Shown here: one piece after another, positions 28,323-36,976 of the stretch
Position numbering within the stretch: position 1 is the first letter of the stretch
How the letters are laid out: the number at the start of each line of letters is the position of its first letter
NCBI GenBank assembly: GCA_003244205.1
Contig: QHBW01000034.1
Location: 1 to 64,000 of the forward strand
Direction: 5' to 3'
Length of the DNA: 64,000 bases
DNA from: Solirubrobacterales bacterium
GTDB lineage: Bacteria; Actinomycetota; Thermoleophilia; Solirubrobacterales; Solirubrobacteraceae
The notes under the pieces: generated by a model
Seen by the model: the letters and a program-made list of their open reading frames with translations, nothing else
The model's database searches: none
Told to the model about the DNA's origin: nothing
Program-made: the position numbers and the translations under genes

Positions 28323-30041
28323 CTACCCGGACGCCTGCTGTGAGACGCGCACAGGCGCCGCTGCGGACATCCCCGCGCGCAGCGCAGCCAGCGGAGGACG
28401 CTCGTGGATCGCAACCAGCGGGGTTTCGAGACCGCCGCCGCGAGCGCGGGTGATGTGCGCGGAAGTGCTCAGGGGCTCCAAGGAGAGTCGGCGCTCTGCG
28501 GCAATCAGGATCGCGTAGGCCATCTCCCCAAGGGCCCCCAGTGACTGGTGGCGATTCTGGCGCACCCCGAGGTTGACCTGGGCGAGCGCGTCGAGACCAC
28601 ATAGTCGCTCGGCGTCAACCAGCAGACCGAGCTCGACCCCGTAGCCTTCGGCGAAGGGCAGCGCCTCCAGCAGGCCGCGCCGGCCCGCCGTCTCCCCCGC
28701 CAGCGGCTGGACAAAGCCGGCGAGTGCGGGGAAGTGGAGGTTGATCAGCGGCCGAGCCATCAGCTCGGTCACGCGCCCGCCGCCATCGGGGATCGTCGCC
28801 TGGCCAACGCGAAACGGGCGACCGAAGGCCCCCTTCACCAGCCCGATGCTCGGCTCGCCAAGCAGTGGTCCGAGCAGACCAAGCGCGAAGCCGGCGTCAA
28901 ACGCCGTCGTATCGCTGTCGATGTAAGCCACGATCTCAGAGCTCGTGGCACTCAAGCCGCGCCACATTGCGTCGCCCTTGCCGCACGCGGGGCCCTGTTC
29001 GGCGAGCAGCTCGGACTCCTGGGCAACCGTTGCGCCATGGCGCTCGGCAACGGCGGCGGTGCCGTCTTGCGAAGCGGCGTCTACGACAAGCAGCTCGTCG
29101 ACAAGGCCGGCCGCCTGCAGCGGCAGGAGCGCGTCAACGATCGGCCCGATCGTTTCGGCGACCTCGCGTGCAGGGAGCACGAGGGCGATCGACTCGCGCT
29201 TGAGCGCCAGCAGCCCTTCCAGCGTGTAGTCAGAGCCCTCATAGCTGCGTCGGGCGAACCAGTCCGCCACAGCGAGGTCGCGCGCGAGCCCGCGATCTGC
29301 CCGGCCGCGGCGGCGCGCCGACGTGGTCACGCGGACCGTGCCAGCGTGATCAATGGGGACGCGGTGACGACGCAGCATTCGCTCGAAGCCCTCGTCCTCC
29401 AACGCCGGGTGCGGATCGAGGCCGCCCACCTCGGCGTAGGTGGCCACCGTCACCGACATCGAGGCGCCGCTGAACTGACCATGGGCGGGCGCGCTGGTGA
29501 ACGTGCGCTCACCACGATGTTCCGCGAGCGGGCGCACGTGCTCAGCGCGACGCGCGAGCATGCGAGCGCGATCTCCCAACACCTGCGCGGGCAGGAGCGC
29601 GGCTTCACCCGGGTCGAGGTCGATGCGCCCGCCGATGGCCCGAGCGCCTCGCCGGACGGCGTCCAGCTGAGCGCGCAGCCAATCGGCGGCAACGCGCGTG
29701 TCCGCGTCGGTGCACGCGATCAGACCTTCGCTCCGTCCCAACGCGAGCAGGCGCGCGCATGCGAAATCCATCCCGATCCGACGCGCGGCTCCAACGCCTC
29801 GTCCCGGGCCCTGCCGCAATTGCAGACGTAGATGCGGATGCCAAGCGGCGGCCTCCAAGGCGCGCTGCTCGGTTTGGTCGCGGCAACGGTCGAGCACGAC
29901 AATCACCTCGTAGGCCTCCGGCGCGATCCCCACCTGGTCCGCCAGCGCCTCGAGGCAAGCGGCGATGCGCTGCTGCTCATCGTGAGCAGGGACGACGACG
30001 CACGCCTGCAGCGACGCGTCGGGAGGCAGGATCGGGCTCAC
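28323..30041 (-). CDS. Bifunctional glycosyltransferase: GT2 domain fused to glucosyl-3-phosphoglycerate-synthase-like domain
   Basis: 572 residues with two GT-A folds. Domain 1 (about 1-280) has VVVPAHDEQQRIAACLEALADQ and the metal-binding DxD as ACTDADTRV. Domain 2 (about 285-510) closely follows GpgS: PAREVAETIGPIVDALLPL, GPACGKGDAMWRGL, YIDSDTTAFD, GGGRVTELMARPLINLHFP and LAGFVQPLAGE. GpgS adds glucose to 3-phosphoglycerate, the first step toward glucosylglycerate or methylglucose lipopolysaccharides. Fusion of the two in one chain is unusual. GTG 30041 overlaps the stop of the upstream gene (GTGA). It is the last gene of a seven-gene operon. Confidence 0.85.
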   Translation of the reverse strand: MSPILPPDASLQACVVVPAHDEQQRIAACLEALADQVGIAPEAYEVIVVLDRCRDQTEQRALEAAAWHPHLRLQLRQGPGRGVGAARRIGMDFACARLLALGRSEGLIACTDADTRVAADWLRAQLDAVRRGARAIGGRIDLDPGEAALLPAQVLGDRARMLARRAEHVRPLAEHRGERTFTSAPAHGQFSGASMSVTVATYAEVGGLDPHPALEDEGFERMLRRHRVPIDHAGTVRVTTSARRRGRADRGLARDLAVADWFARRSYEGSDYTLEGLLALKRESIALVLPAREVAETIGPIVDALLPLQAAGLVDELLVVDAASQDGTAAVAERHGATVAQESELLAEQGPACGKGDAMWRGLSATSSEIVAYIDSDTTAFDAGFALGLLGPLLGEPSIGLVKGAFGRPFRVGQATIPDGGGRVTELMARPLINLHFPALAGFVQPLAGETAGRRGLLEALPFAEGYGVELGLLVDAERLCGLDALAQVNLGVRQNRHQSLGALGEMAYAILIAAERRLSLEPLSTSAHITRARGGGLETPLVAIHERPPLAALRAGMSAAAPVRVSQQASG

Positions 30042-31210
30042 TTGAAGGCGGCTCCTGCCGCCACCTGCTGTTGGCCGCGCTCGTAGTCCTCGTCGCGGTC
30101 GTGGGTGAGCACACCGACGAGGATCCCGTCGAGGCCATAGCGGACAGTGAACGCTCCCTCGCCGTGATCGATGAAGTCGAGCTCGTCGAAGCCATCGCCC
30201 CAGGCGACGTACTTGAGCGTACGCGAGGCGATCGTCGACCAGAACCCCGGTGCAGCATCCCAGCATCGCTGCACCCCGGCGAGCCGGCCACCGACCACGG
30301 CACCGTGGTTGAGCGCTTCCCCCCAGTGCTCGACGCGCAGGCGTCGGCCGGCCCGCGGGTGCTCAGCGCAAGCGACGTCTCCAGCGGCCCACACCCGCTC
30401 GTCGGCGGTGCGCAGCGCGGCGTCCGTGGCAATCGCGCCCTCCTCGGCCAGCTCAATACCAGCGTCCTCGGCGAGCTCGACTCGAGGGCTGACGCCAACC
30501 GCCATCAACACCACATCGGCGGTCGTCTCTTGGCCGAGCTGGTCGCTCACGGTGAGACCTCCGCTGTGCTGCACGATGCGCTCGACAGGCGCTCCCAGGC
30601 GCAGCGATACGCCGCCGTCGCGCAACCAGGCCGTGATCCGCTCGCCGACCTCCCCGCCCAGTCGCCCCGCCTGCGGGAGAGCCTCGTCGGTGACGAGCAT
30701 GACCTCGAGACCCCGCGCAGACAGCGACGCAGCCGCCTCACAGCCGATGAAGCCCGAGCCGACGACGACGGCTCTGGTGCCCGCGTGCACTCGCCGGCAC
30801 AGCTCGTCGGCATCGGCGAGCGAGCGCAGCGTGCACACCCCAGGGGCCTGCGAGCCGGGCACCGGCAGCCTTGACGGTCGACTGCCCGTAGCGACCACGC
30901 AGTGGTCGTAGCAAACGCGCTCGCCGGCGGCGGTCTCGACGACGCGCTGGACCGCGTCGAGCGCGATGACCTTCGCCTGACGCAGCTCGATGCTGCGATC
31001 CGCGAAGAATCGCGGCGGTTCGATCGGCAGTTCGTTGGCCGCGAGCTCGCCGCGCAGGTACTCCTTGCTGAGCGGGGGCCGCCGATAGGGCGGGCATCCC
31101 TCCTCGGAGAGGATGACGACATCGCCGCTGCCGCCCGCGCTGCGATAGGCACGCACGGTTGCCAATGCTGCTGGTCCACCACCGACGATGACGATGCGTT
31201 CACGGCTCAC
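30038..31210 (-). CDS. FAD/NAD(P)-dependent pyridine nucleotide-disulfide oxidoreductase
   Basis: 390 residues, ferredoxin-reductase-like. The FAD motif IVIVGGGPAALATVRAYR is near residue 5, the NAD(P) motif AVVVGSGFIGCEAAASL near residue 145, and the third FAD motif ERVWAAGDVAC later. PPYRRPPLSKEYLRG and VEHWGEALNHG are typical of rubredoxin/ferredoxin reductases and lack a redox-active CxxxxC. It could feed electrons to the acyl-CoA-dehydrogenase-like protein encoded two genes upstream or to an oxygenase elsewhere. GTG 31210 overlaps the upstream stop by 4 nt. Confidence 0.85.
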   Translation of the reverse strand: MSRERIVIVGGGPAALATVRAYRSAGGSGDVVILSEEGCPPYRRPPLSKEYLRGELAANELPIEPPRFFADRSIELRQAKVIALDAVQRVVETAAGERVCYDHCVVATGSRPSRLPVPGSQAPGVCTLRSLADADELCRRVHAGTRAVVVGSGFIGCEAAASLSARGLEVMLVTDEALPQAGRLGGEVGERITAWLRDGGVSLRLGAPVERIVQHSGGLTVSDQLGQETTADVVLMAVGVSPRVELAEDAGIELAEEGAIATDAALRTADERVWAAGDVACAEHPRAGRRLRVEHWGEALNHGAVVGGRLAGVQRCWDAAPGFWSTIASRTLKYVAWGDGFDELDFIDHGEGAFTVRYGLDGILVGVLTHDRDEDYERGQQQVAAGAAFK

Positions 31211-31782
31211 CGCGTTCGATCGAGTCGATCCAGCCGGAAGCGGCGCTCGCAATGGGCCACAGCTGGCTCGAGCCGGGTGTTGGCAAGCAACCGGCGGTGA
31301 ACTTGATCGCCTGAGAGCGCATGGCTCGCCGCGCGTCCTCGCCAGTGCACTGAGAGCAGGCTGCCACCGGGCGCAAGCGCCTGCTCGAACGCCCGCTGGG
31401 CCTGTGCCAGCCGGGCGGGCGGCCAGTAATAGAGGACCTCGGAGCAAACGATGAGGTCGAACGGGCCGGGTGGAGTTTGCTCTGGCAGTTTGCGCTGCTG
31501 GACATGGACATGGGGGAGCCCGCGCAGGCGCTGTCGCGCACGCCTCAGCGCCGTGGGGGACACATCGACCGCGACCAGATCGTCACACAGTCCTGCCAGG
31601 CGCTCGGTGAACACACCAATCGAGCAACCCACTTCCAGCGCGCGGCGGTAGCGCCGCGCGCCGAGCGCCTCGAGCGTACGGTCGTATTTGAAGGCCTCAT
31701 ATGCGCTCGTCGCGAATCGCCAGGGATCATCCGCGCGCCGGTAGAGCGACTCGAAGTGGGCGATGCTCGGGGCCGGGCTCAT
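31207..31782 (-). CDS. NodS-like SAM-dependent methyltransferase
   Basis: 191 residues, class I fold. SAM-binding motif I is ALEVGCSIGVFTERLA, with the acidic ribose ligand in LVAVDVSPTALRRAR and motif IV as FDLIVCSEVLYYW. The N-terminus FESLYRRADDPWRFATSAYE is a hallmark of the NodS group, whose founding member N-methylates the deacetylated glucosamine of Nod factors. A polysaccharide deacetylase lies two genes upstream, making N-methylation of a freed amine a reasonable guess. Its ATGA start overlaps the upstream flavoprotein gene. Confidence 0.82.
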   Translation of the reverse strand: MSPAPSIAHFESLYRRADDPWRFATSAYEAFKYDRTLEALGARRYRRALEVGCSIGVFTERLAGLCDDLVAVDVSPTALRRARQRLRGLPHVHVQQRKLPEQTPPGPFDLIVCSEVLYYWPPARLAQAQRAFEQALAPGGSLLSVHWRGRAASHALSGDQVHRRLLANTRLEPAVAHCERRFRLDRLDRTR

Positions 31783-32873
31783 CGCCTTGCTTCGAGCTCC
31801 ACCAGCCCGGCGCGTGCGAGCAGCGGATCGAGACGATGCTGGACGACGAACAGCTCGAGGTCGCGGCGGGCCCGATCGAGGGTGGCGCCCTGAGCGAGGG
31901 CACGCGCACCGCACGCACGCGTGGCCTCGTCCACGATTGCGCCCCCAGCCGCGGCGATCGCCGCCCGTAGCTGGATCGAGAGCTGCGTCATTGGGGCATA
32001 CGGAGCCGCCTCGGCCTGCCGGGCGGCCGCGTCCAGCCAAAGGTCGATGGCGCGGCGAGCGGTGATCAGCCTGGCGGCAGCCAGGCCCTCGATCGATGTG
32101 GGCTGGCCTCGGCGTGCGAGCTGATCCAACGCCGCGTCCGCGACGGCGTCCGCGGTACCAGCCCAGGTGGCGGCCGTGCGGATCGCGTCGCGCGAGAACC
32201 ACGGCTCTCGTCCGAGCTCGCCCGGCACCCCCAGTGGCGCGATGACGCGCGCACCGTGGAAAATGACACGGTGACTCTCTGAGGCGCGCATGCCGCTGCC
32301 CTGAAACCAGCTGTGATCGACCTCGACGCCCTCGGCGAGGTCGACATAGACCAGCAGCGGTGGTCCGGACCCGTCGGGCGCCTGGGCGAGCACGAGCGCG
32401 CGATGGAGGCCCCCGGCCCCGGAGCAGAACACCTTGACCCCCTCGAGGCAATCGCCACGCACGCGCGCGGGCTCGCCTTCATCCGGTCCCGGATCGGCGC
32501 CCCAGACCCCCAGCCAGAGTGCGCCCCCGGCTATCTCGGCGAGCTCTCGCGTGCGCAGGGGCTCGGGCGCGAGCGCGACGAGTCGCTCGACGGCGTTGAG
32601 ATGACCGTCGAGGATCCGGCTCACCGATGCATCCGCGCGCGCGACCTTGCGTACCACCTCCCACTCGTGCCCGAATGCGCCGGCATGGCCGCCCGGGGCC
32701 GTGAACGACAGCGCACCAGCTGCTGCGAGCGCAGCGATGGAGTCGCGCGGAAACGCGGGGTTGCGATCGCGCTCCTGGGCGCCCTCAGCGATGCTCGCAA
32801 GCGCGGCGGAGAGAGCCGGGGCGTCCAGACGGGAACCTGCGGGAGGGGACGTGATCGTCAAGTCGGGCAGCAT
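31779..32873 (-). CDS. Acyl-CoA-dehydrogenase-like flavoprotein
   Basis: 364 residues with the helical-beta-helical layout of acyl-CoA dehydrogenases (PRDSIAALAAAGALSFTAPG, then VKVFCSGAGGLHRALVLA). The C-terminal catalytic-Glu segment FEGTxxIQ is not found, and the last third is short (RRDLELFVVQHRLDPLLARAG). It may therefore use another base, act as an oxidase or bind a non-CoA substrate. Proteins of this type recur with GT2, NodS-like and deacetylase genes in other bacteria. Start ATG 32873 overlaps the deacetylase gene by 16 nt. Confidence 0.78.
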   Translation of the reverse strand: MLPDLTITSPPAGSRLDAPALSAALASIAEGAQERDRNPAFPRDSIAALAAAGALSFTAPGGHAGAFGHEWEVVRKVARADASVSRILDGHLNAVERLVALAPEPLRTRELAEIAGGALWLGVWGADPGPDEGEPARVRGDCLEGVKVFCSGAGGLHRALVLAQAPDGSGPPLLVYVDLAEGVEVDHSWFQGSGMRASESHRVIFHGARVIAPLGVPGELGREPWFSRDAIRTAATWAGTADAVADAALDQLARRGQPTSIEGLAAARLITARRAIDLWLDAAARQAEAAPYAPMTQLSIQLRAAIAAAGGAIVDEATRACGARALAQGATLDRARRDLELFVVQHRLDPLLARAGLVELEARR

Positions 32874-33469
32874 CTCAGCGCGGCGGAGACGGTCGTTGGC
32901 TCGCAGCCGCGCTCGCGCAGCGCGCGCACGAGTGGGGCCAGCAGGCGCACCGTCTCCCCGCACAGCGTTCGCCGTGCTCCCGGGCCCAAACCGTCGTGCA
33001 TCAGCACGATCGCGCCTGGACGCAAGCCGGGGGTCACGTGCTCCAGCATGGTCACAGCCCGGTCCCCGCGCCAGTCATGGGTGTCGAGGTCCCAGCCGAT
33101 GACGCGCAGGCCGCGTGTGCGGGCAATCCTGGGCGTACTGGGGCCGAGCTGACCCCAGGGCACGCGCCACCAACACGGGTGCACGCCGACGCCGCCGAGG
33201 GCCTCGAGGGCGCGATTGGTGTCCGCCTCGATGACCGCGGCGGAATGACGGCCGTGGCGCAGGTGCCTCCAGCAGTGCAGCCCGATCTCGTGCCCGCCGT
33301 GGAGGATCTTCTCCACGAGCCGTACGTGGCGCTCGGCCTGGGCCGCGTGTACGAAGAAGGTGGCGCTGGCATCACAGGACTGCAGCGCAGCGAGCACCCG
33401 TGGCGTCCAGACCGGATGCGGTCCATCGTCGAAGGTCAAGGCGACGGCCCTGTCGCAAGGTGATGGCAT
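32858..33469 (-). CDS. Polysaccharide deacetylase (NodB homology domain)
   Basis: 203 residues, CE4 family. The catalytic base motif is ALTFDDGPHPVWT; metal ligands fit HEIGLHCWRHLRHG (family H-x3-5-H). PWGQLGPSTP replaces the usual arginine motif RxPxG with WWRVPWG. GWDLDTHDWRG and GAIVLMHDGLG complete the fold. It removes N- or O-acetyl groups from a sugar polymer. No signal peptide is visible, so it may act on a cytosolic, lipid-linked or nucleotide-linked substrate. ATG 33469 is preferred; a longer frame adds 12 residues. Confidence 0.87.
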   Translation of the reverse strand: MPSPCDRAVALTFDDGPHPVWTPRVLAALQSCDASATFFVHAAQAERHVRLVEKILHGGHEIGLHCWRHLRHGRHSAAVIEADTNRALEALGGVGVHPCWWRVPWGQLGPSTPRIARTRGLRVIGWDLDTHDWRGDRAVTMLEHVTPGLRPGAIVLMHDGLGPGARRTLCGETVRLLAPLVRALRERGCEPTTVSAALRCCPT

Positions 33470-33511
33470 TGCAGGTACCTCGCTGCCCGCCCGGGAACCG
33501 GTCAAAACCCG

Positions 33512-33880
33512 TCAGTGGAGCCGCGGGCGGGCCGTCAGCTCGGCGACCAGCGCCGCGGCGTCGCGCACGAGGCGCGAGCGGGGCACCACGAGGTCGAAGC
33601 CCGCCTGCAGCGCTCGCGTCTTCGCCGCTGCGTCCACGTGGGCGTAGCTGGCAAGCGCCGGCACCGGGTTCCGCTGTGGACCAGCACGGAAGGCGCTCAA
33701 CAGCTCATCCGGATCGATCCCCCCGGCGGCCAGGTCGACGACCAGCACATCGCAAGCCTGCGCATGCTCCGGCGCACGCCTCCAATCGCCGAGGAGCTCG
33801 ACCTCGTGACCGGCGGCACGCAGCGTTCCGGCGAGGTTGGAGCCGAACAGCAGGTCCCCCACGATCGCCACGCGCGCCAT
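33512..33880 (-). CDS. Receiver-like (pseudo-response-regulator) protein
   Basis: 122 residues forming one alternating alpha/beta domain. VAIVGDLLFGSNLAGTL resembles strand 1 of response regulators but with one acidic residue. DVLVVDLAAGGID holds an aspartate where phosphorylation would occur. The strand-5 lysine is replaced (FDLVVPRSRL). No output domain follows. It may bind a partner without phosphorylation. It is 5 nt after the upstream orphan gene and 42 nt before the deacetylase. Confidence 0.65.
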   Translation of the reverse strand: MARVAIVGDLLFGSNLAGTLRAAGHEVELLGDWRRAPEHAQACDVLVVDLAAGGIDPDELLSAFRAGPQRNPVPALASYAHVDAAAKTRALQAGFDLVVPRSRLVRDAAALVAELTARPRLH

Positions 33881-33884
33881 CGAT

Positions 33885-34247
33885 CTACTGTCCGCGAAGG
33901 CGGCGAAACTCCTCGCGGAAGGACTCGGGCCTCCCCCACATCGGAACGATCTCGTGGCGTCCAGAGCGCACATCGCGCACGGCAATCTCGGCCGCGATAC
34001 GCGCGTCGTCGAGCAGCTTCAGCGACCCGTGCACGGTCGGCGCGGCGGCCGCATGACCAAAGTGATGAGCGACGAGGATCCGCCAGTGCCAGTCGTGCTG
34101 GGAGTAGGGCTGGGCGTTACAGGTGACGAGGTACGTGGCCGCCTCGATGTAGCGCGACTCGTCGCGCAGGCGCAGGTCGAGCTCGAGGTCGGTCCAATCG
34201 GACGGCAGGACGTCGATAACCGCCCGGAAGGTGTCGGCGAGGTCCAC
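33885..34247 (-). CDS. Conserved-looking small protein, unknown function
   Basis: 120 residues, soluble, rich in Trp and His (SQHDWHWRILVAHHFGHAAA). DWTDLELDLRLRDESRYIEAATYL and WGRPESFREEFRRLRG suggest a compact alpha/beta fold. I do not recognise the family. It starts at GTG 34247, 25 bp from the divergent ygfZ gene, and heads the glycosyltransferase operon. Confidence 0.65.
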   Translation of the reverse strand: MDLADTFRAVIDVLPSDWTDLELDLRLRDESRYIEAATYLVTCNAQPYSQHDWHWRILVAHHFGHAAAAPTVHGSLKLLDDARIAAEIAVRDVRSGRHEIVPMWGRPESFREEFRRLRGQ

Positions 34248-34272: not shown

Positions 34273-35259
34273 GTGGCCCCCGGTGCCCTACCCGGCGAGC
34301 GGCTCCTCCCCGCCGAGGAGTACACGCTGCTGACCAGGGCCGCGGGCGTGCTGGACCGCTCCGAGCGTGGCAAGCTCGCGCTGACTGGTAGCGGCGCCAA
34401 GGAGTTCCTCCAGGGGCAGGTCTCCAACGACGTGTCCAGCCTCTGCCCCGGAGCGGGCTGTTACGCGGCGATGCTGACGCCGAAGGGCAAGATGCTCGGC
34501 GACATGCGCATCCTCGACACTGGCGAGGAGCTGCTGCTGGATTGCGAGCGCATCGCGCTCCAGCCGATCTTCAACCGCATTCGCGCCACTGCTGTCGGCT
34601 TTGACGTCGAACTGCACAAGCGAACCCTGCAGCGCGCGCTGATCTCGGTGATCGGACCGCTGGCGCGAGCGATCACCGGCTTCGCGTCGCTCGCCGACGC
34701 AGAGCACGCCAACGTCGCCTCGTCGCTGGCTGGAGTCCCCACGATCGCGGTCGCCACCGACGTCGGGGTCGACCTGATCGTGGAGTCCGGCGCGCCGGCG
34801 GACGCCGTCCTCGCCACGCTACTTGAGCGTGGTGGGAGGCCGGTCACCGAGGAGGCCGCTGAGCTGCTGCGCATCGAGCGTGGACGCCCGCGTTACGGCA
34901 TCGACCTCGACGACTCCGTGATCCCCCAGGAGGCAGGGCTCAACGCCCGCGCCGTCTCCTTCACCAAGGGCTGTTACGTAGGTCAGGAGACGGTTGCCCG
35001 GATGCACTACAAGGGCAAGCCGAACCGCCACTTGCGCGGACTGCGCCTGACCCGCCCGGCTGAGCGGGGCGCGGAGCTGACGCTCGCCGAGGACGGGCGC
35101 GCGGTGGGATCGCTCGCCAGCGCCGCCGTGCACCCCAGCCTCGGTCCGATTGGCCTCGCGCTCGTGCGCCGTGAGGCGGCGCAACCGGGCACCGATGTGC
35201 TCGTCGGCGCGACCGACCCGGCGAGCGTCGTGGTGCTTCCGTTCTCCGCTACGAACTAG
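34273..35259 (+). CDS. ygfZ: YgfZ/GcvT-like folate-binding protein
   Basis: 328 residues. YgfZ proteins bind tetrahydrofolate and support repair or assembly of iron-sulfur enzymes. The diagnostic motif KGCYVGQE is present (SFTKGCYVGQETVARMHYKG). The fold is GcvT-like, but the aminomethyltransferase catalytic pattern is absent. It starts at GTG 34273 behind a -10 hexamer with no leader. Iron-sulfur enzymes in the window (formate dehydrogenase, FbiC, MoaA) are plausible clients. It overlaps the convergent nuclease gene by 11 bp. Confidence 0.88.
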   Translation: MAPGALPGERLLPAEEYTLLTRAAGVLDRSERGKLALTGSGAKEFLQGQVSNDVSSLCPGAGCYAAMLTPKGKMLGDMRILDTGEELLLDCERIALQPIFNRIRATAVGFDVELHKRTLQRALISVIGPLARAITGFASLADAEHANVASSLAGVPTIAVATDVGVDLIVESGAPADAVLATLLERGGRPVTEEAAELLRIERGRPRYGIDLDDSVIPQEAGLNARAVSFTKGCYVGQETVARMHYKGKPNRHLRGLRLTRPAERGAELTLAEDGRAVGSLASAAVHPSLGPIGLALVRREAAQPGTDVLVGATDPASVVVLPFSATN

Positions 35260-36976
35260 CAGCCAACCTGTGGCCCGCCAGCGCGGCCAGCCGCTCAGGC
35301 TCGGCGGCGTCCCGGAGGTCGATCACGCACGCCTCTGGGTGGGTGGCCAACCAAACGGCGATGATCCGCACCTCGTCGACCTCCTCGGCCGGAATCCACG
35401 CGCTGCCTGGCGGATCTGTGGGGGTCACGTTCACAAGCGCTGCGGCACTGCGAACACTCAGCTCCTCGAGTCCCGGCCGCCGTCCCCAATCGACGAGCCG
35501 CCCGGCGACCAGCCACAGGGCATCACCGGGGCCGGCATCCGCGCCCCGCGGATGGGGCGCGAGCACGAGGCGTGAGCGGGCATGCGTGGCCGCGATCACG
35601 CCCCCCACACGCTCCAGCAGCATGCCCAGCCGCTTCTGTCGCCGCCGCAGGGCGCCAGCGCGCTCGTAGCGGTACTCAGCGGCGGCGGCGCGCATTTGCT
35701 CGTCGACGTGCGCGAGCAACCGGGCGCTGCCAGCGCCGAGCACGGCGAGCGCCTCCTCCAGCCGGCGGCGATAGAGGTTTGGGTCGAGGTTTCCGAGACA
35801 GGGTGAAAGGCAGCGCCCCATCTGCCCGTATGCGGAAGGGAACCTGCGCCGCGCGAGTCGCCGGCCGCAGTGGCGCAGTCCGAAGAGCGAATTGAGCTGT
35901 TCGACGAGCTCCGCCGCCGCTGCCCGGCCCCGCAAGGGACCGATGTTGATGGCTCGGTAGGGCGCAGGAGTGGGCGCAACCTCGAGCACCGGATAGGGGA
36001 TGTCGAGCCGGCAGCGCAGATAGACGTAGCGATCCAGGCGCCTCAGGCGAACGTTGCCAGCCGGTAGGAGCTCCTTGATCAGCCGGTTCTCGAGCACCAA
36101 CGCGCCGAGCTCTGAGCCCGTTGGCCGGTGATCGACGACGGCTGCGCGTGCGGTCCACGCGCCCTCCTGCGCGCCCGGGTGGAAGTGGGCGCGAGCCCGT
36201 GATCGCAGCGAGATCGACTTGCCCACGTAGAGCGCTTCTCCGAGCTCGTCGCGGAACAGGTACACGCCCGGCTCGCCCGGAAGGGCGTCGAAGCGCAGCC
36301 CGGGTGGCGGCCGTGGCGGGCTCGCGCGAACTCGAGCGGGATGCCTGCTGGTGGCGCGCCGTCGGGGCGCGAGAGCCGCGAGCGCGTCCGCAACCGTGGC
36401 CGCGTGGGCGCAGAGCCTTGGAAAGAGCGCACAGAATACCCGCGCGCAGGTCTCAGCATCGGGGAGCGCGCGGTGCGCAGCAGCGACATCGATGCCGAGC
36501 GCGGCGGCTAAGCTGCCCAGCCGCCGCTCTCCAACGAGCGGTGCAAACCGCCTAGCCAGCGCGACCGTGCACAAGGTGGGCGGCGCGGGCCAGGCCAGTC
36601 CCGACGCGGCAAAGGCGCCGCACAGCACACGACGGTCGAAGGCCGCCGAGTGGGCGACGAGCACGCGCCCCTCCAAGAGCTCCCCGAGATGCCCAAGCAC
36701 GCCGTCGGGGCACTCTCCGTCATCCACCATCTCCTGGGTGATCCCCGTGAAGCGCTGGATCCCGCGGCCCAGGGGACGTTGCACAGAAACGACGGCCGAG
36801 AACCGCTCGTGCAGCTCGCCACCGCCCACCAGCACTGCGCCGACTTCGGTGAGCTCGCATTCGGCACCTGACCGTCCGTTGGTCTCGACATCGACCGCGA
36901 GAAACTCCGCCGTTCGCAGGGGATCGGCGAGCAAGTCCATCGGCGTCTGATATCTCGGCAGCGGGACGGCATGCAT
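35249..36976 (-). CDS. DEDDh exonuclease fused to UvrC-like GIY-YIG nuclease
   Basis: 575 residues. The N-terminal exonuclease domain has Exo I FLAVDVETNG, Exo II region VLVAHSAAFDRRVL and Exo III AHRALPDAETCARVF (HxxxxxD), as in DnaQ. From about residue 225 a GIY-YIG domain follows (GEPGVYLFRDELGEALYVGKSISLRSR), then a UvrC-like region with the cysteines of CGRRLARRRFPSAYGQMGRCLSPC and a UvrB-interaction-like segment. It is not UvrC itself: the RNase-H and HhH parts are missing. It probably acts in a DNA repair side pathway known mainly from actinobacteria. ATG 36976 or MDLLADP at 36940 may start it. Confidence 0.85.
   Translation of the reverse strand: MHAVPLPRYQTPMDLLADPLRTAEFLAVDVETNGRSGAECELTEVGAVLVGGGELHERFSAVVSVQRPLGRGIQRFTGITQEMVDDGECPDGVLGHLGELLEGRVLVAHSAAFDRRVLCGAFAASGLAWPAPPTLCTVALARRFAPLVGERRLGSLAAALGIDVAAAHRALPDAETCARVFCALFPRLCAHAATVADALAALAPRRRATSRHPARVRASPPRPPPGLRFDALPGEPGVYLFRDELGEALYVGKSISLRSRARAHFHPGAQEGAWTARAAVVDHRPTGSELGALVLENRLIKELLPAGNVRLRRLDRYVYLRCRLDIPYPVLEVAPTPAPYRAINIGPLRGRAAAAELVEQLNSLFGLRHCGRRLARRRFPSAYGQMGRCLSPCLGNLDPNLYRRRLEEALAVLGAGSARLLAHVDEQMRAAAAEYRYERAGALRRRQKRLGMLLERVGGVIAATHARSRLVLAPHPRGADAGPGDALWLVAGRLVDWGRRPGLEELSVRSAAALVNVTPTDPPGSAWIPAEEVDEVRIIAVWLATHPEACVIDLRDAAEPERLAALAGHRLAASS

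What the first reader, a model, noticed from the sequence alone, without database searches (positions are those of the whole stretch)
28323..34247. Seven-gene operon combining NodB-, NodS- and GpgS-like functions with two flavoproteins
Overlapping minus-strand genes encode a GT2-GpgS double transferase, FAD reductase, NodS-like methyltransferase, ACAD-like protein, NodB-type deacetylase, degenerate receiver and an orphan protein. A glycosyl transfer, N-deacetylation, N-methylation and oxidation series can be imagined, analogous to Nod-factor chemistry but with a glucosylglycerate-type acceptor. I know related GT2/ACAD/NodS/PIG-L clusters exist in other phyla without assigned function; here a CE4 deacetylase takes the PIG-L place.
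Basis: partly seen in the sequence, partly recalled or inferred. Interest (0 to 1): 0.82.

Follow-up and report, generated by a model that had tools for sequence, protein, structure and literature searches.

The report
Unassigned amino-sugar operon with swapped deacetylase
A five-gene bacterial operon that probably builds and modifies a small amino-sugar compound is real and conserved, and is the Thermoleophilia/Rubrobacter form of a pathway of unknown product found in at least five bacterial phyla, in which one kind of deacetylase was replaced by an unrelated one, apparently once.

Summary
The operon is real, but it has five genes, not seven: CE4 (NodB-like) deacetylase, ACAD-fold flavoprotein, NodS-like methyltransferase, FAD reductase and a GT2::GpgS fusion (window 28323-33469, minus strand). 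The two upstream genes are an order-wide housekeeping pair that lies elsewhere in relatives.

Among 76 non-redundant loci, 47 (Solirubrobacterales, Rubrobacter) carry CE4-ACAD-NodS-[FAD reductase]-GT2-[GpgS]. The other 29 (other Actinomycetota, Pseudomonadota, Deinococcota, Bacteroidota, Cyanobacteriota) carry a PIG-L deacetylase with ACAD-NodS-GT2; none carries both. In the ACAD tree one branch (100/100) separates the two types, so the deacetylase was swapped apparently once. GpgS is fused to GT2 or a separate gene at the other end of the operon, and is degenerate in some Rubrobacter.

The 'ACAD' lacks both catalytic glutamates of acyl-CoA dehydrogenases. By sequence and fold it is nearest to flavin monooxygenases (DszC, MsuC) and amino-sugar N-oxygenases (DnmZ, KijD3).

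Best reading, inferred: GT2 builds a cytosolic glycoside, in this lineage perhaps on glucosylglycerate; its HexNAc is de-N-acetylated, N-methylated and flavin-oxidised. Product and activities are untested; an open-access library held no paper on the cluster.

The parts
32858..33469 (-). CE4 polysaccharide-deacetylase (NodB-like), 203 aa, starts directly at the catalytic domain, so probably cytosolic
   Evidence: PF01522 83 bits; TFDDG, HxxxH, WRxPWG, DxxDW and LxHD motifs present in 46 of 47 homologues, the exception being a truncated gene
31779..32873 (-). ACAD-fold flavoprotein, probably a group-D-like flavin monooxygenase, 364 aa
   Evidence: AF2 pLDDT 94; Foldseek best hits include DnmZ, TdsC, DszC, KijD3; both ACAD catalytic Glu positions replaced
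31207..31782 (-). NodS-like SAM-dependent methyltransferase, 191 aa
   Evidence: PF05401 78 bits; best PDB profile hits 4isc (165 bits) and NodS 3ofj (108 bits)
30038..31210 (-). FAD-dependent NAD(P)H reductase (putidaredoxin/rubredoxin-reductase type), optional member present in 32 of 47 CE4-type loci
   Evidence: PF07992 193 bits; PDB 3fg2, 1q1r
29211..30041 (-). GT2 glycosyltransferase domain (aa 1-277) of the fusion, DxD and xED motifs intact
   Evidence: PF00535; motifs conserved across CE4- and PIG-L-type loci; fusion model pLDDT 92
28323..29210 (-). GpgS (GT81) domain (aa 278-572): glucosyl/mannosyl-3-phosphoglycerate synthase, motifs intact
   Evidence: NF010496 356 bits against cut-off 262; DSD, GKGD, GGGRVTEL, NRHQ present; 44% to R. 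xylanophilus MpgS 3f1y; the only GpgS found in this genome
33512..33880 (-). receiver-like protein, 122 aa: upstream neighbour, NOT a cluster member
   Evidence: 125 of 151 genomes of the order, next to the orphan gene, away from the cluster
33885..34247 (-). orphan conserved protein, 120 aa: NOT a cluster member
   Evidence: 144 of 151 genomes of the order

Best explanation
The five genes encode a cytosolic pathway that builds and modifies a small amino-sugar glycoside. The GT2 domain transfers an N-acetylhexosamine (probably GlcNAc) to an acceptor. The CE4 enzyme removes the N-acetyl group, the NodS-like enzyme methylates the freed amine, and the ACAD-fold flavoprotein oxidises the sugar (N-hydroxylation is the most likely chemistry) with reduced flavin from the FAD reductase. 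In Thermoleophilia the fused GpgS domain supplies the acceptor or its precursor, glucosyl- or mannosyl-3-phosphoglycerate. The start resembles mycothiol and bacillithiol synthesis (GlcNAc transfer, then de-N-acetylation); it then takes an N-methyl/oxidation branch instead of cysteine ligation. SHOWN here: gene content, conserved linkage, intact GT2, CE4 and GpgS motifs, loss of the dehydrogenase glutamates, and CE4/PIG-L replacement. INFERRED: every substrate, the order of steps, N- rather than O-chemistry, and the product.
For: Conserved gene set in 76 non-redundant loci, CE4 in 47 and PIG-L in 29, never both. Two unrelated deacetylase folds in the same slot, with one branch separating the types in the ACAD tree (100/100), make N-deacetylation of an amino sugar the best supported step. 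NodS itself N-methylates a de-N-acetylated glucosamine (established knowledge), and this protein is a NodS-family member by Pfam and PDB profile. ACAD: the catalytic Glu positions carry invariant Arg232 and, in CE4-type members, His346; the RxxFG segment of true ACADs is missing; nearest solved relatives include the sugar N-oxygenases DnmZ, KijD3 and ORF36. Group D monooxygenases take reduced flavin from a separate reductase and are known to N-hydroxylate (PMC5481743, PMC6165268); a flavin-dependent NAD(P)H reductase is present in 32 of 47 CE4-type loci. GpgS is fused at the 3' end in most Thermoleophilia loci or is a separate gene at the 5' end (L075, L082, L083, L122), a Rosetta-stone pattern. 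The acceptor-phosphate motif G-R-x-T described for GT81 is kept (PMC7185993). The GT2 signature is shared by both types.
Against: No activity or product is known. GpgS is degenerate at 8 Rubrobacter loci, missing at other CE4 loci and not found at PIG-L loci, so a glucosylglycerate acceptor cannot be general. The catalytic His of DszC/SfnB-type monooxygenases is Gln345 here, so the monooxygenase assignment rests on fold and homology. The FAD reductase resembles ferredoxin reductases and is missing at 15 of 47 CE4-type loci. NodS-like enzymes could methylate O or a carboxylate. One locus (L062) has ACAD-NodS-FADR-GT2 with no deacetylase on its 10-kb contig.
Confidence: 0.5

Rival explanations
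1. Same pathway core, but GpgS makes glucosylglycerate as an independent compatible solute; its fusion to GT2 reflects only co-expression, and the acceptor of GT2 is something else (a polyol, lipid or phosphate).
For: GpgS is widespread in the order outside the cluster and present somewhere in most cluster-bearing genomes of both types (39 of 43); it is degenerate or absent at many CE4 loci.
Against: GpgS is fused to GT2 in most Thermoleophilia loci and in the window genome is the only copy found; it occurs at two different places in the operon.
Confidence: 0.35
2. The product is a cell-envelope glycolipid or polysaccharide (mycobacterial MGLP-like or a lipid-linked amino sugar) rather than a small soluble glycoside.
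For: GT2 and CE4 families often act on polysaccharides; GpgS starts MGLP synthesis in mycobacteria (PMC4555173); single loci sit beside LytR-CpsA-Psr or PMT-type genes.
Against: The modelled GT2::GpgS fusion is two soluble GT-A domains, the CE4 protein starts directly at its catalytic domain, and no transporter, polymerase or flippase was seen to recur at the loci examined.
Confidence: 0.25
3. The ACAD-like enzyme is a dehydrogenase/reductase acting on an acyl or amine group without O2, with the FAD reductase as electron partner.
For: ACAD fold; several true ACADs appear among the Foldseek hits with similar TM-scores; the partner resembles ferredoxin reductases.
Against: Neither catalytic Glu position is retained and the RxxFG segment is missing; sequence profiles favour DszC, MsuC, KijD3 and ORF36 over ACADs.
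Confidence: 0.15
4. The genes are merely adjacent and serve unrelated pathways.
Against: The other five recur together in two classes of Actinomycetota, and the four-enzyme core recurs in at least five phyla.
Confidence: 0.02

Closest known systems
Unassigned ACAD / PIG-L / NodS / GT2 clusters (Acinetobacter, sphingomonads, roseobacters, Deinococcus, Spirosoma, Nostoc, many Actinomycetota)
   Same: Homologous ACAD, NodS and GT2 genes in a tight cluster with a deacetylase
   Different: Deacetylase is PIG-L there and CE4 here; no FAD reductase or GpgS found at those loci
Mycothiol / bacillithiol biosynthesis (MshA-MshB, BshA-BshB)
   Same: Logic: transfer of GlcNAc to a small acceptor followed by de-N-acetylation
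   Different: GT2 instead of GT4, CE4 instead of PIG-L, methyltransferase and flavoprotein in place of a Cys ligase (comparison from general knowledge)
Nod-factor NodB/NodS
   Same: CE4 deacetylase and NodS-fold methyltransferase acting on an amino sugar (inferred)
   Different: Scores below NodB and NodS equivalog cut-offs; no NodC or NodA model matched by the cluster proteins
GpgS/MpgS (GT81) of mycobacteria and Rubrobacter xylanophilus
   Same: Domain passes the GpgS equivalog model; catalytic and phosphate-binding motifs intact
   Different: Fused to a GT2 inside a modification operon; donor (Glc or Man) not resolved
Group D flavin monooxygenases: DszC/TdsC, MsuC, DnmZ, KijD3, ORF36
   Same: ACAD fold, nearest solved relatives by profile and among the nearest by fold
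   Different: Separate clade (100/98); DszC/SfnB catalytic His replaced by Gln345

Membership tests
NodB chitooligosaccharide deacetylase (TIGR04243) | Score above equivalog cut-off 240 | tested here: not met
   116 bits
CE4 deacetylase | Five catalytic motifs TFDDG, HxxxH, RxPWG, DxxDW, LxH | tested here: met
   All present in the window protein and in 46 of 47 homologues; the exception (L071) is truncated
NodS nodulation methyltransferase (NF041650) | Score above equivalog cut-off 300 | tested here: not met
   93 bits; the broader Pfam NodS family PF05401 is met at 78 bits against 24
Nod-factor pathway | NodC-type chitin-oligomer synthase and NodA acyltransferase | tested here: not met
   No NodC or NodA model hit for the cluster proteins or immediate neighbours
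Glucosyl-3-phosphoglycerate synthase GpgS (NF010496, GT81) | Equivalog cut-off 262; DxD; acceptor-phosphate motif G-R-x-T | tested here: met
   356 bits; DSD, GGGRVTEL and NRHQ present
Glucosyl-3-phosphoglycerate synthase GpgS (NF010496, GT81) | Glucose rather than mannose donor | not testable with these tools
   Closest solved structure is R. xylanophilus MpgS, whose dual specificity is stated in the title of a paper cited in PMC4555173
Acyl-CoA dehydrogenase | Catalytic Glu at the MCAD or IVD position | tested here: not met
   His346 and Arg232 at the aligned positions (equivalence to the MCAD/IVD residues is from general knowledge of those enzymes)
Acyl-CoA dehydrogenase | Pfam middle-domain cut-off PF02770 | tested here: not met
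   16.9 bits against 33.3
Group D flavin monooxygenase | ACAD fold with closest relatives among group D enzymes | tested here: met
   Profile and Foldseek hits, although true ACADs also score well in Foldseek
Group D flavin monooxygenase | Catalytic His above the flavin near the C-terminus (DszC/SfnB position) | tested here: inconclusive
   That position is Gln345; an adjacent His346 occurs in CE4-type members only
Group D flavin monooxygenase | O2- and reduced-flavin-dependent oxygenation | not testable with these tools
   Needs purified protein
MftF mycofactocin glycosyltransferase (TIGR03965) | Cut-off 280 | tested here: not met
   69 bits for the GT2 domain
Mycothiol/bacillithiol pathway | Cys ligase (MshC/BshC) at or near the locus | not tested
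   No dedicated search was made

The most novel reading that the evidence does not exclude
The module makes a previously undescribed class of intracellular N-methylated, N-oxygenated amino-sugar glycosides, in Thermoleophilia built on glucosyl- or mannosylglycerate, that helps hardy soil and desiccation-tolerant bacteria (Rubrobacter, Deinococcus, Acinetobacter, Sphingomonas) withstand stress, much as mycothiol and bacillithiol are lineage-wide small glycosides.
Probability: 0.25. Interest if true: 0.85.

Novelty: new variant of a known kind. Interest (0 to 1): 0.62.

Why it matters
A four-enzyme core (GT2, deacetylase, ACAD-like flavoprotein, NodS-like methyltransferase) occurs in at least five phyla, including Deinococcus radiodurans and Acinetobacter plasmids, and the searches here found no paper that assigns it a product. 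The CE4 variant sharpens the chemistry: two unrelated deacetylase folds filling one slot argue that N-deacetylation of an amino sugar is the shared step, and the GpgS fusion names a concrete candidate acceptor. That makes the pathway directly testable by deletion and metabolomics in culturable hosts.

Tried and rejected
Seven-gene operon: rejected, as the receiver-like and orphan genes form an independent pair. Literal Nod-factor pathway: rejected on cut-offs. True acyl-CoA dehydrogenase: disfavoured by alignment with real ACADs from the same order. H91 as a discriminating catalytic residue: dropped, because many true ACADs share it. An apparent absence of the xED motif in PIG-L-type GT2s was an artefact of too strict a search pattern. 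GpgS presence elsewhere in the genome as support for a shared acceptor: uninformative, since nearly all cluster-bearing Actinomycetota genomes of both types have one. Ten literature searches found no description of the cluster (cluster-directed ones; open-access library only). The first window gene-call script had a bug and was redone. A GpgP phosphatase was not looked for.
Full report
CHECK OF THE OBSERVATION. The seven minus-strand ORFs are present. With refined starts they are orphan 33885-34247, receiver-like 33512-33880, CE4 32858-33469, ACAD-like 31779-32873, NodS-like 31207-31782, FAD reductase 30038-31210 and GT2::GpgS 28323-30041. The last four genes are joined by 4-bp overlaps, and the CE4 and ACAD genes overlap by 16 bp. 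The window lies in a 2.66-Mb, 100-contig genome that is 93% complete; the relatives that carry the CE4 cluster are Solirubrobacterales and Rubrobacter.

FAMILY CALLS. The GT2 domain matches PF00535. The GpgS domain scores 356 bits against a curated cut-off of 262. The reductase is Pyr_redox_2, 193 bits. The NodS-like protein scores 78 bits for PF05401 but 93 against 300 for the nodulation equivalog. The ACAD-like protein only grazes Pfam Acyl-CoA_dh_N (23.2 against 22.9) and misses the middle-domain cut-off. The CE4 protein scores 83 bits for PF01522 but 116 against 240 for NodB. The receiver-like and orphan proteins match nothing.

WHICH GENES BELONG TOGETHER. Order-level searches with GT2::GpgS and with the ACAD led to 26 loci taken with their surroundings. 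In them the order NodB-ACAD-NodS-[FAD reductase]-GT2(::GpgS) recurs. The receiver-like and orphan genes do not. The orphan is in 144 of 151 genomes of the order and the receiver-like gene in 125 of 151, next to each other and elsewhere in genomes that also have the cluster (for example G146: cluster on C10, pair on C6; G061: C33 and C80). They are neighbours, not parts.

DISTRIBUTION. A scan of 84,980 species genomes with the ACAD profile found the same cluster in Rubrobacter and Thermoleophilia, and PIG-L versions in Spirosoma and Dyadobacter. Plasmid records gave Rubrobacter indicoceani (CE4) and Deinococcus, Acinetobacter, sphingomonads, Sulfitobacter, Paracoccus, Roseomonas, Jiella and Nostoc (PIG-L). 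A phylum search found 47 of 396 Actinomycetota genomes with the ACAD. About half belong to one family (f20, whose loci match Rubrobacter records) and are CE4-type where examined; most of the rest carry PIG-L. The combined tally is 76 non-redundant loci, 47 CE4 and 29 PIG-L, none with both. The FAD reductase is in 32 and GpgS in 31 of the 47 CE4 loci, and neither was found at PIG-L loci. Exceptions are L062, and L208 where no deacetylase was detected. Loci were gathered through the ACAD, so the tally is conditional on that gene.

ONE DEACETYLASE SWAP. In a tree of 79 ACAD sequences (45 CE4-type, 29 PIG-L-type, 5 outgroups) the CE4 rows form one side of a 100/100 branch, and the whole family is separate from true ACADs and from DszC/SfnB-like proteins (100/98). 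The GT2 domains of both types share one signature, P-[AV]-[RKH]-x-E, D-[AG]-D, G-[AT]-[NS] and ED. CE4 and PIG-L are unrelated folds with the same chemistry, so their mutual exclusion in one slot supports an N-deacetylation step.

THE ACAD-LIKE PROTEIN. The AlphaFold model has mean pLDDT 94. Foldseek ranks DnmZ nitrososynthase, TdsC, DszC and KijD3 among the best hits, mixed with ACADs. A profile search ranks DszC (73 bits), MsuC (73), KijD3 (58) and ORF36 nitrososynthase (55) above the best true ACAD (53). Aligned with real ACADs of the same order, the position of the C-terminal catalytic Glu (EGT) holds His346 in CE4-type members and Pro in two PIG-L-type members. The alternative position holds invariant Arg232. 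The segment that in ACADs contains RxxFG is missing, and the position of the DszC/SfnB His is Gln345. Group D monooxygenases have this fold, take reduced flavin from a partner reductase and include N-hydroxylases (PMC5481743, PMC6165268). The assignment is therefore likely but not proved.

GT2::GpgS. The fusion is modelled at pLDDT 92 as two GT-A domains. The GpgS half is closest to Rubrobacter xylanophilus MpgS (44%) and mycobacterial GpgS (about 40%) and keeps DxD, GKGD, GRxT and NRH. It is the only GpgS found in this genome. In L075, L082, L083 and L122 GpgS is a separate first gene of the operon. In eight Rubrobacter-group loci the fused domain has lost its motifs, and genomes of that group generally have a better-preserved GpgS elsewhere. 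GpgS makes glucosyl-3-phosphoglycerate, the first step of glucosylglycerate and MGLP synthesis in mycobacteria (PMC4555173).

MECHANISM. Shown: linkage, motifs, replacement. Inferred: HexNAc transfer by GT2; de-N-acetylation by CE4; N-methylation by the NodS-like enzyme; flavin-dependent oxidation of the sugar by the ACAD-like enzyme with electrons from the reductase; glucosyl- or mannosylglycerate as acceptor in this lineage only. My confidence is about 0.5 for the chain as a whole, higher for the deacetylation step and lower for the acceptor.

NOVELTY. No description of either cluster form was found in ten full-text searches of an open-access library; subscription papers and preprints were mostly not covered. 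The PIG-L form is visible in annotated records, so this is a new variant of a known but unassigned kind.

Noticed in passing
L094, L095, L100, L120, L213, L216, L217, L222 (Rubrobacter-group loci): The GpgS domain fused to GT2 has lost DxD, GKGD, VTEL and NRH motifs and looks like a dead enzyme kept as a fused tail.
   Followed up: partly
window 33512-34247: Orphan 120-aa protein and receiver-like partner: near-universal pair in the order (144/151 and 125/151 genomes) with no Pfam or NCBIfam match; unknown housekeeping function.
   Followed up: partly
L140 7543-9882; L150 6717-9080 (Deinococcus): The ACAD gene is about 780 aa long, with some 400 aa of unidentified sequence in front of the ACAD domain.
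   Followed up: no
L141, L142, L143, L150 and others: PIG-L-type clusters often lie near catalase, Dps, Crp/Fnr regulators or trehalose-6-phosphate synthase; a stress link not tested statistically.
   Followed up: no
L062 (G061 contig 33): ACAD-NodS-FADR-GT2 without any deacetylase on the contig; two PMT-type genes stand upstream instead.
   Followed up: partly
L074, L077, L078 (Solirubrobacter): An M28-family peptidase gene on the opposite strand is inserted between the ACAD and NodS genes.
   Followed up: partly
L080 7641-8716, L222 6425-7490, L223 6160-7229: ACAD gene split over two frames or by a stop in otherwise intact clusters, in genomes of few contigs; error or real lesion not decided.
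   Followed up: no
window 35249-36976: DEDD exonuclease fused to a UvrC-like region on the minus strand, below the cut-offs of the NCBIfam PRK07883 models.
   Followed up: no
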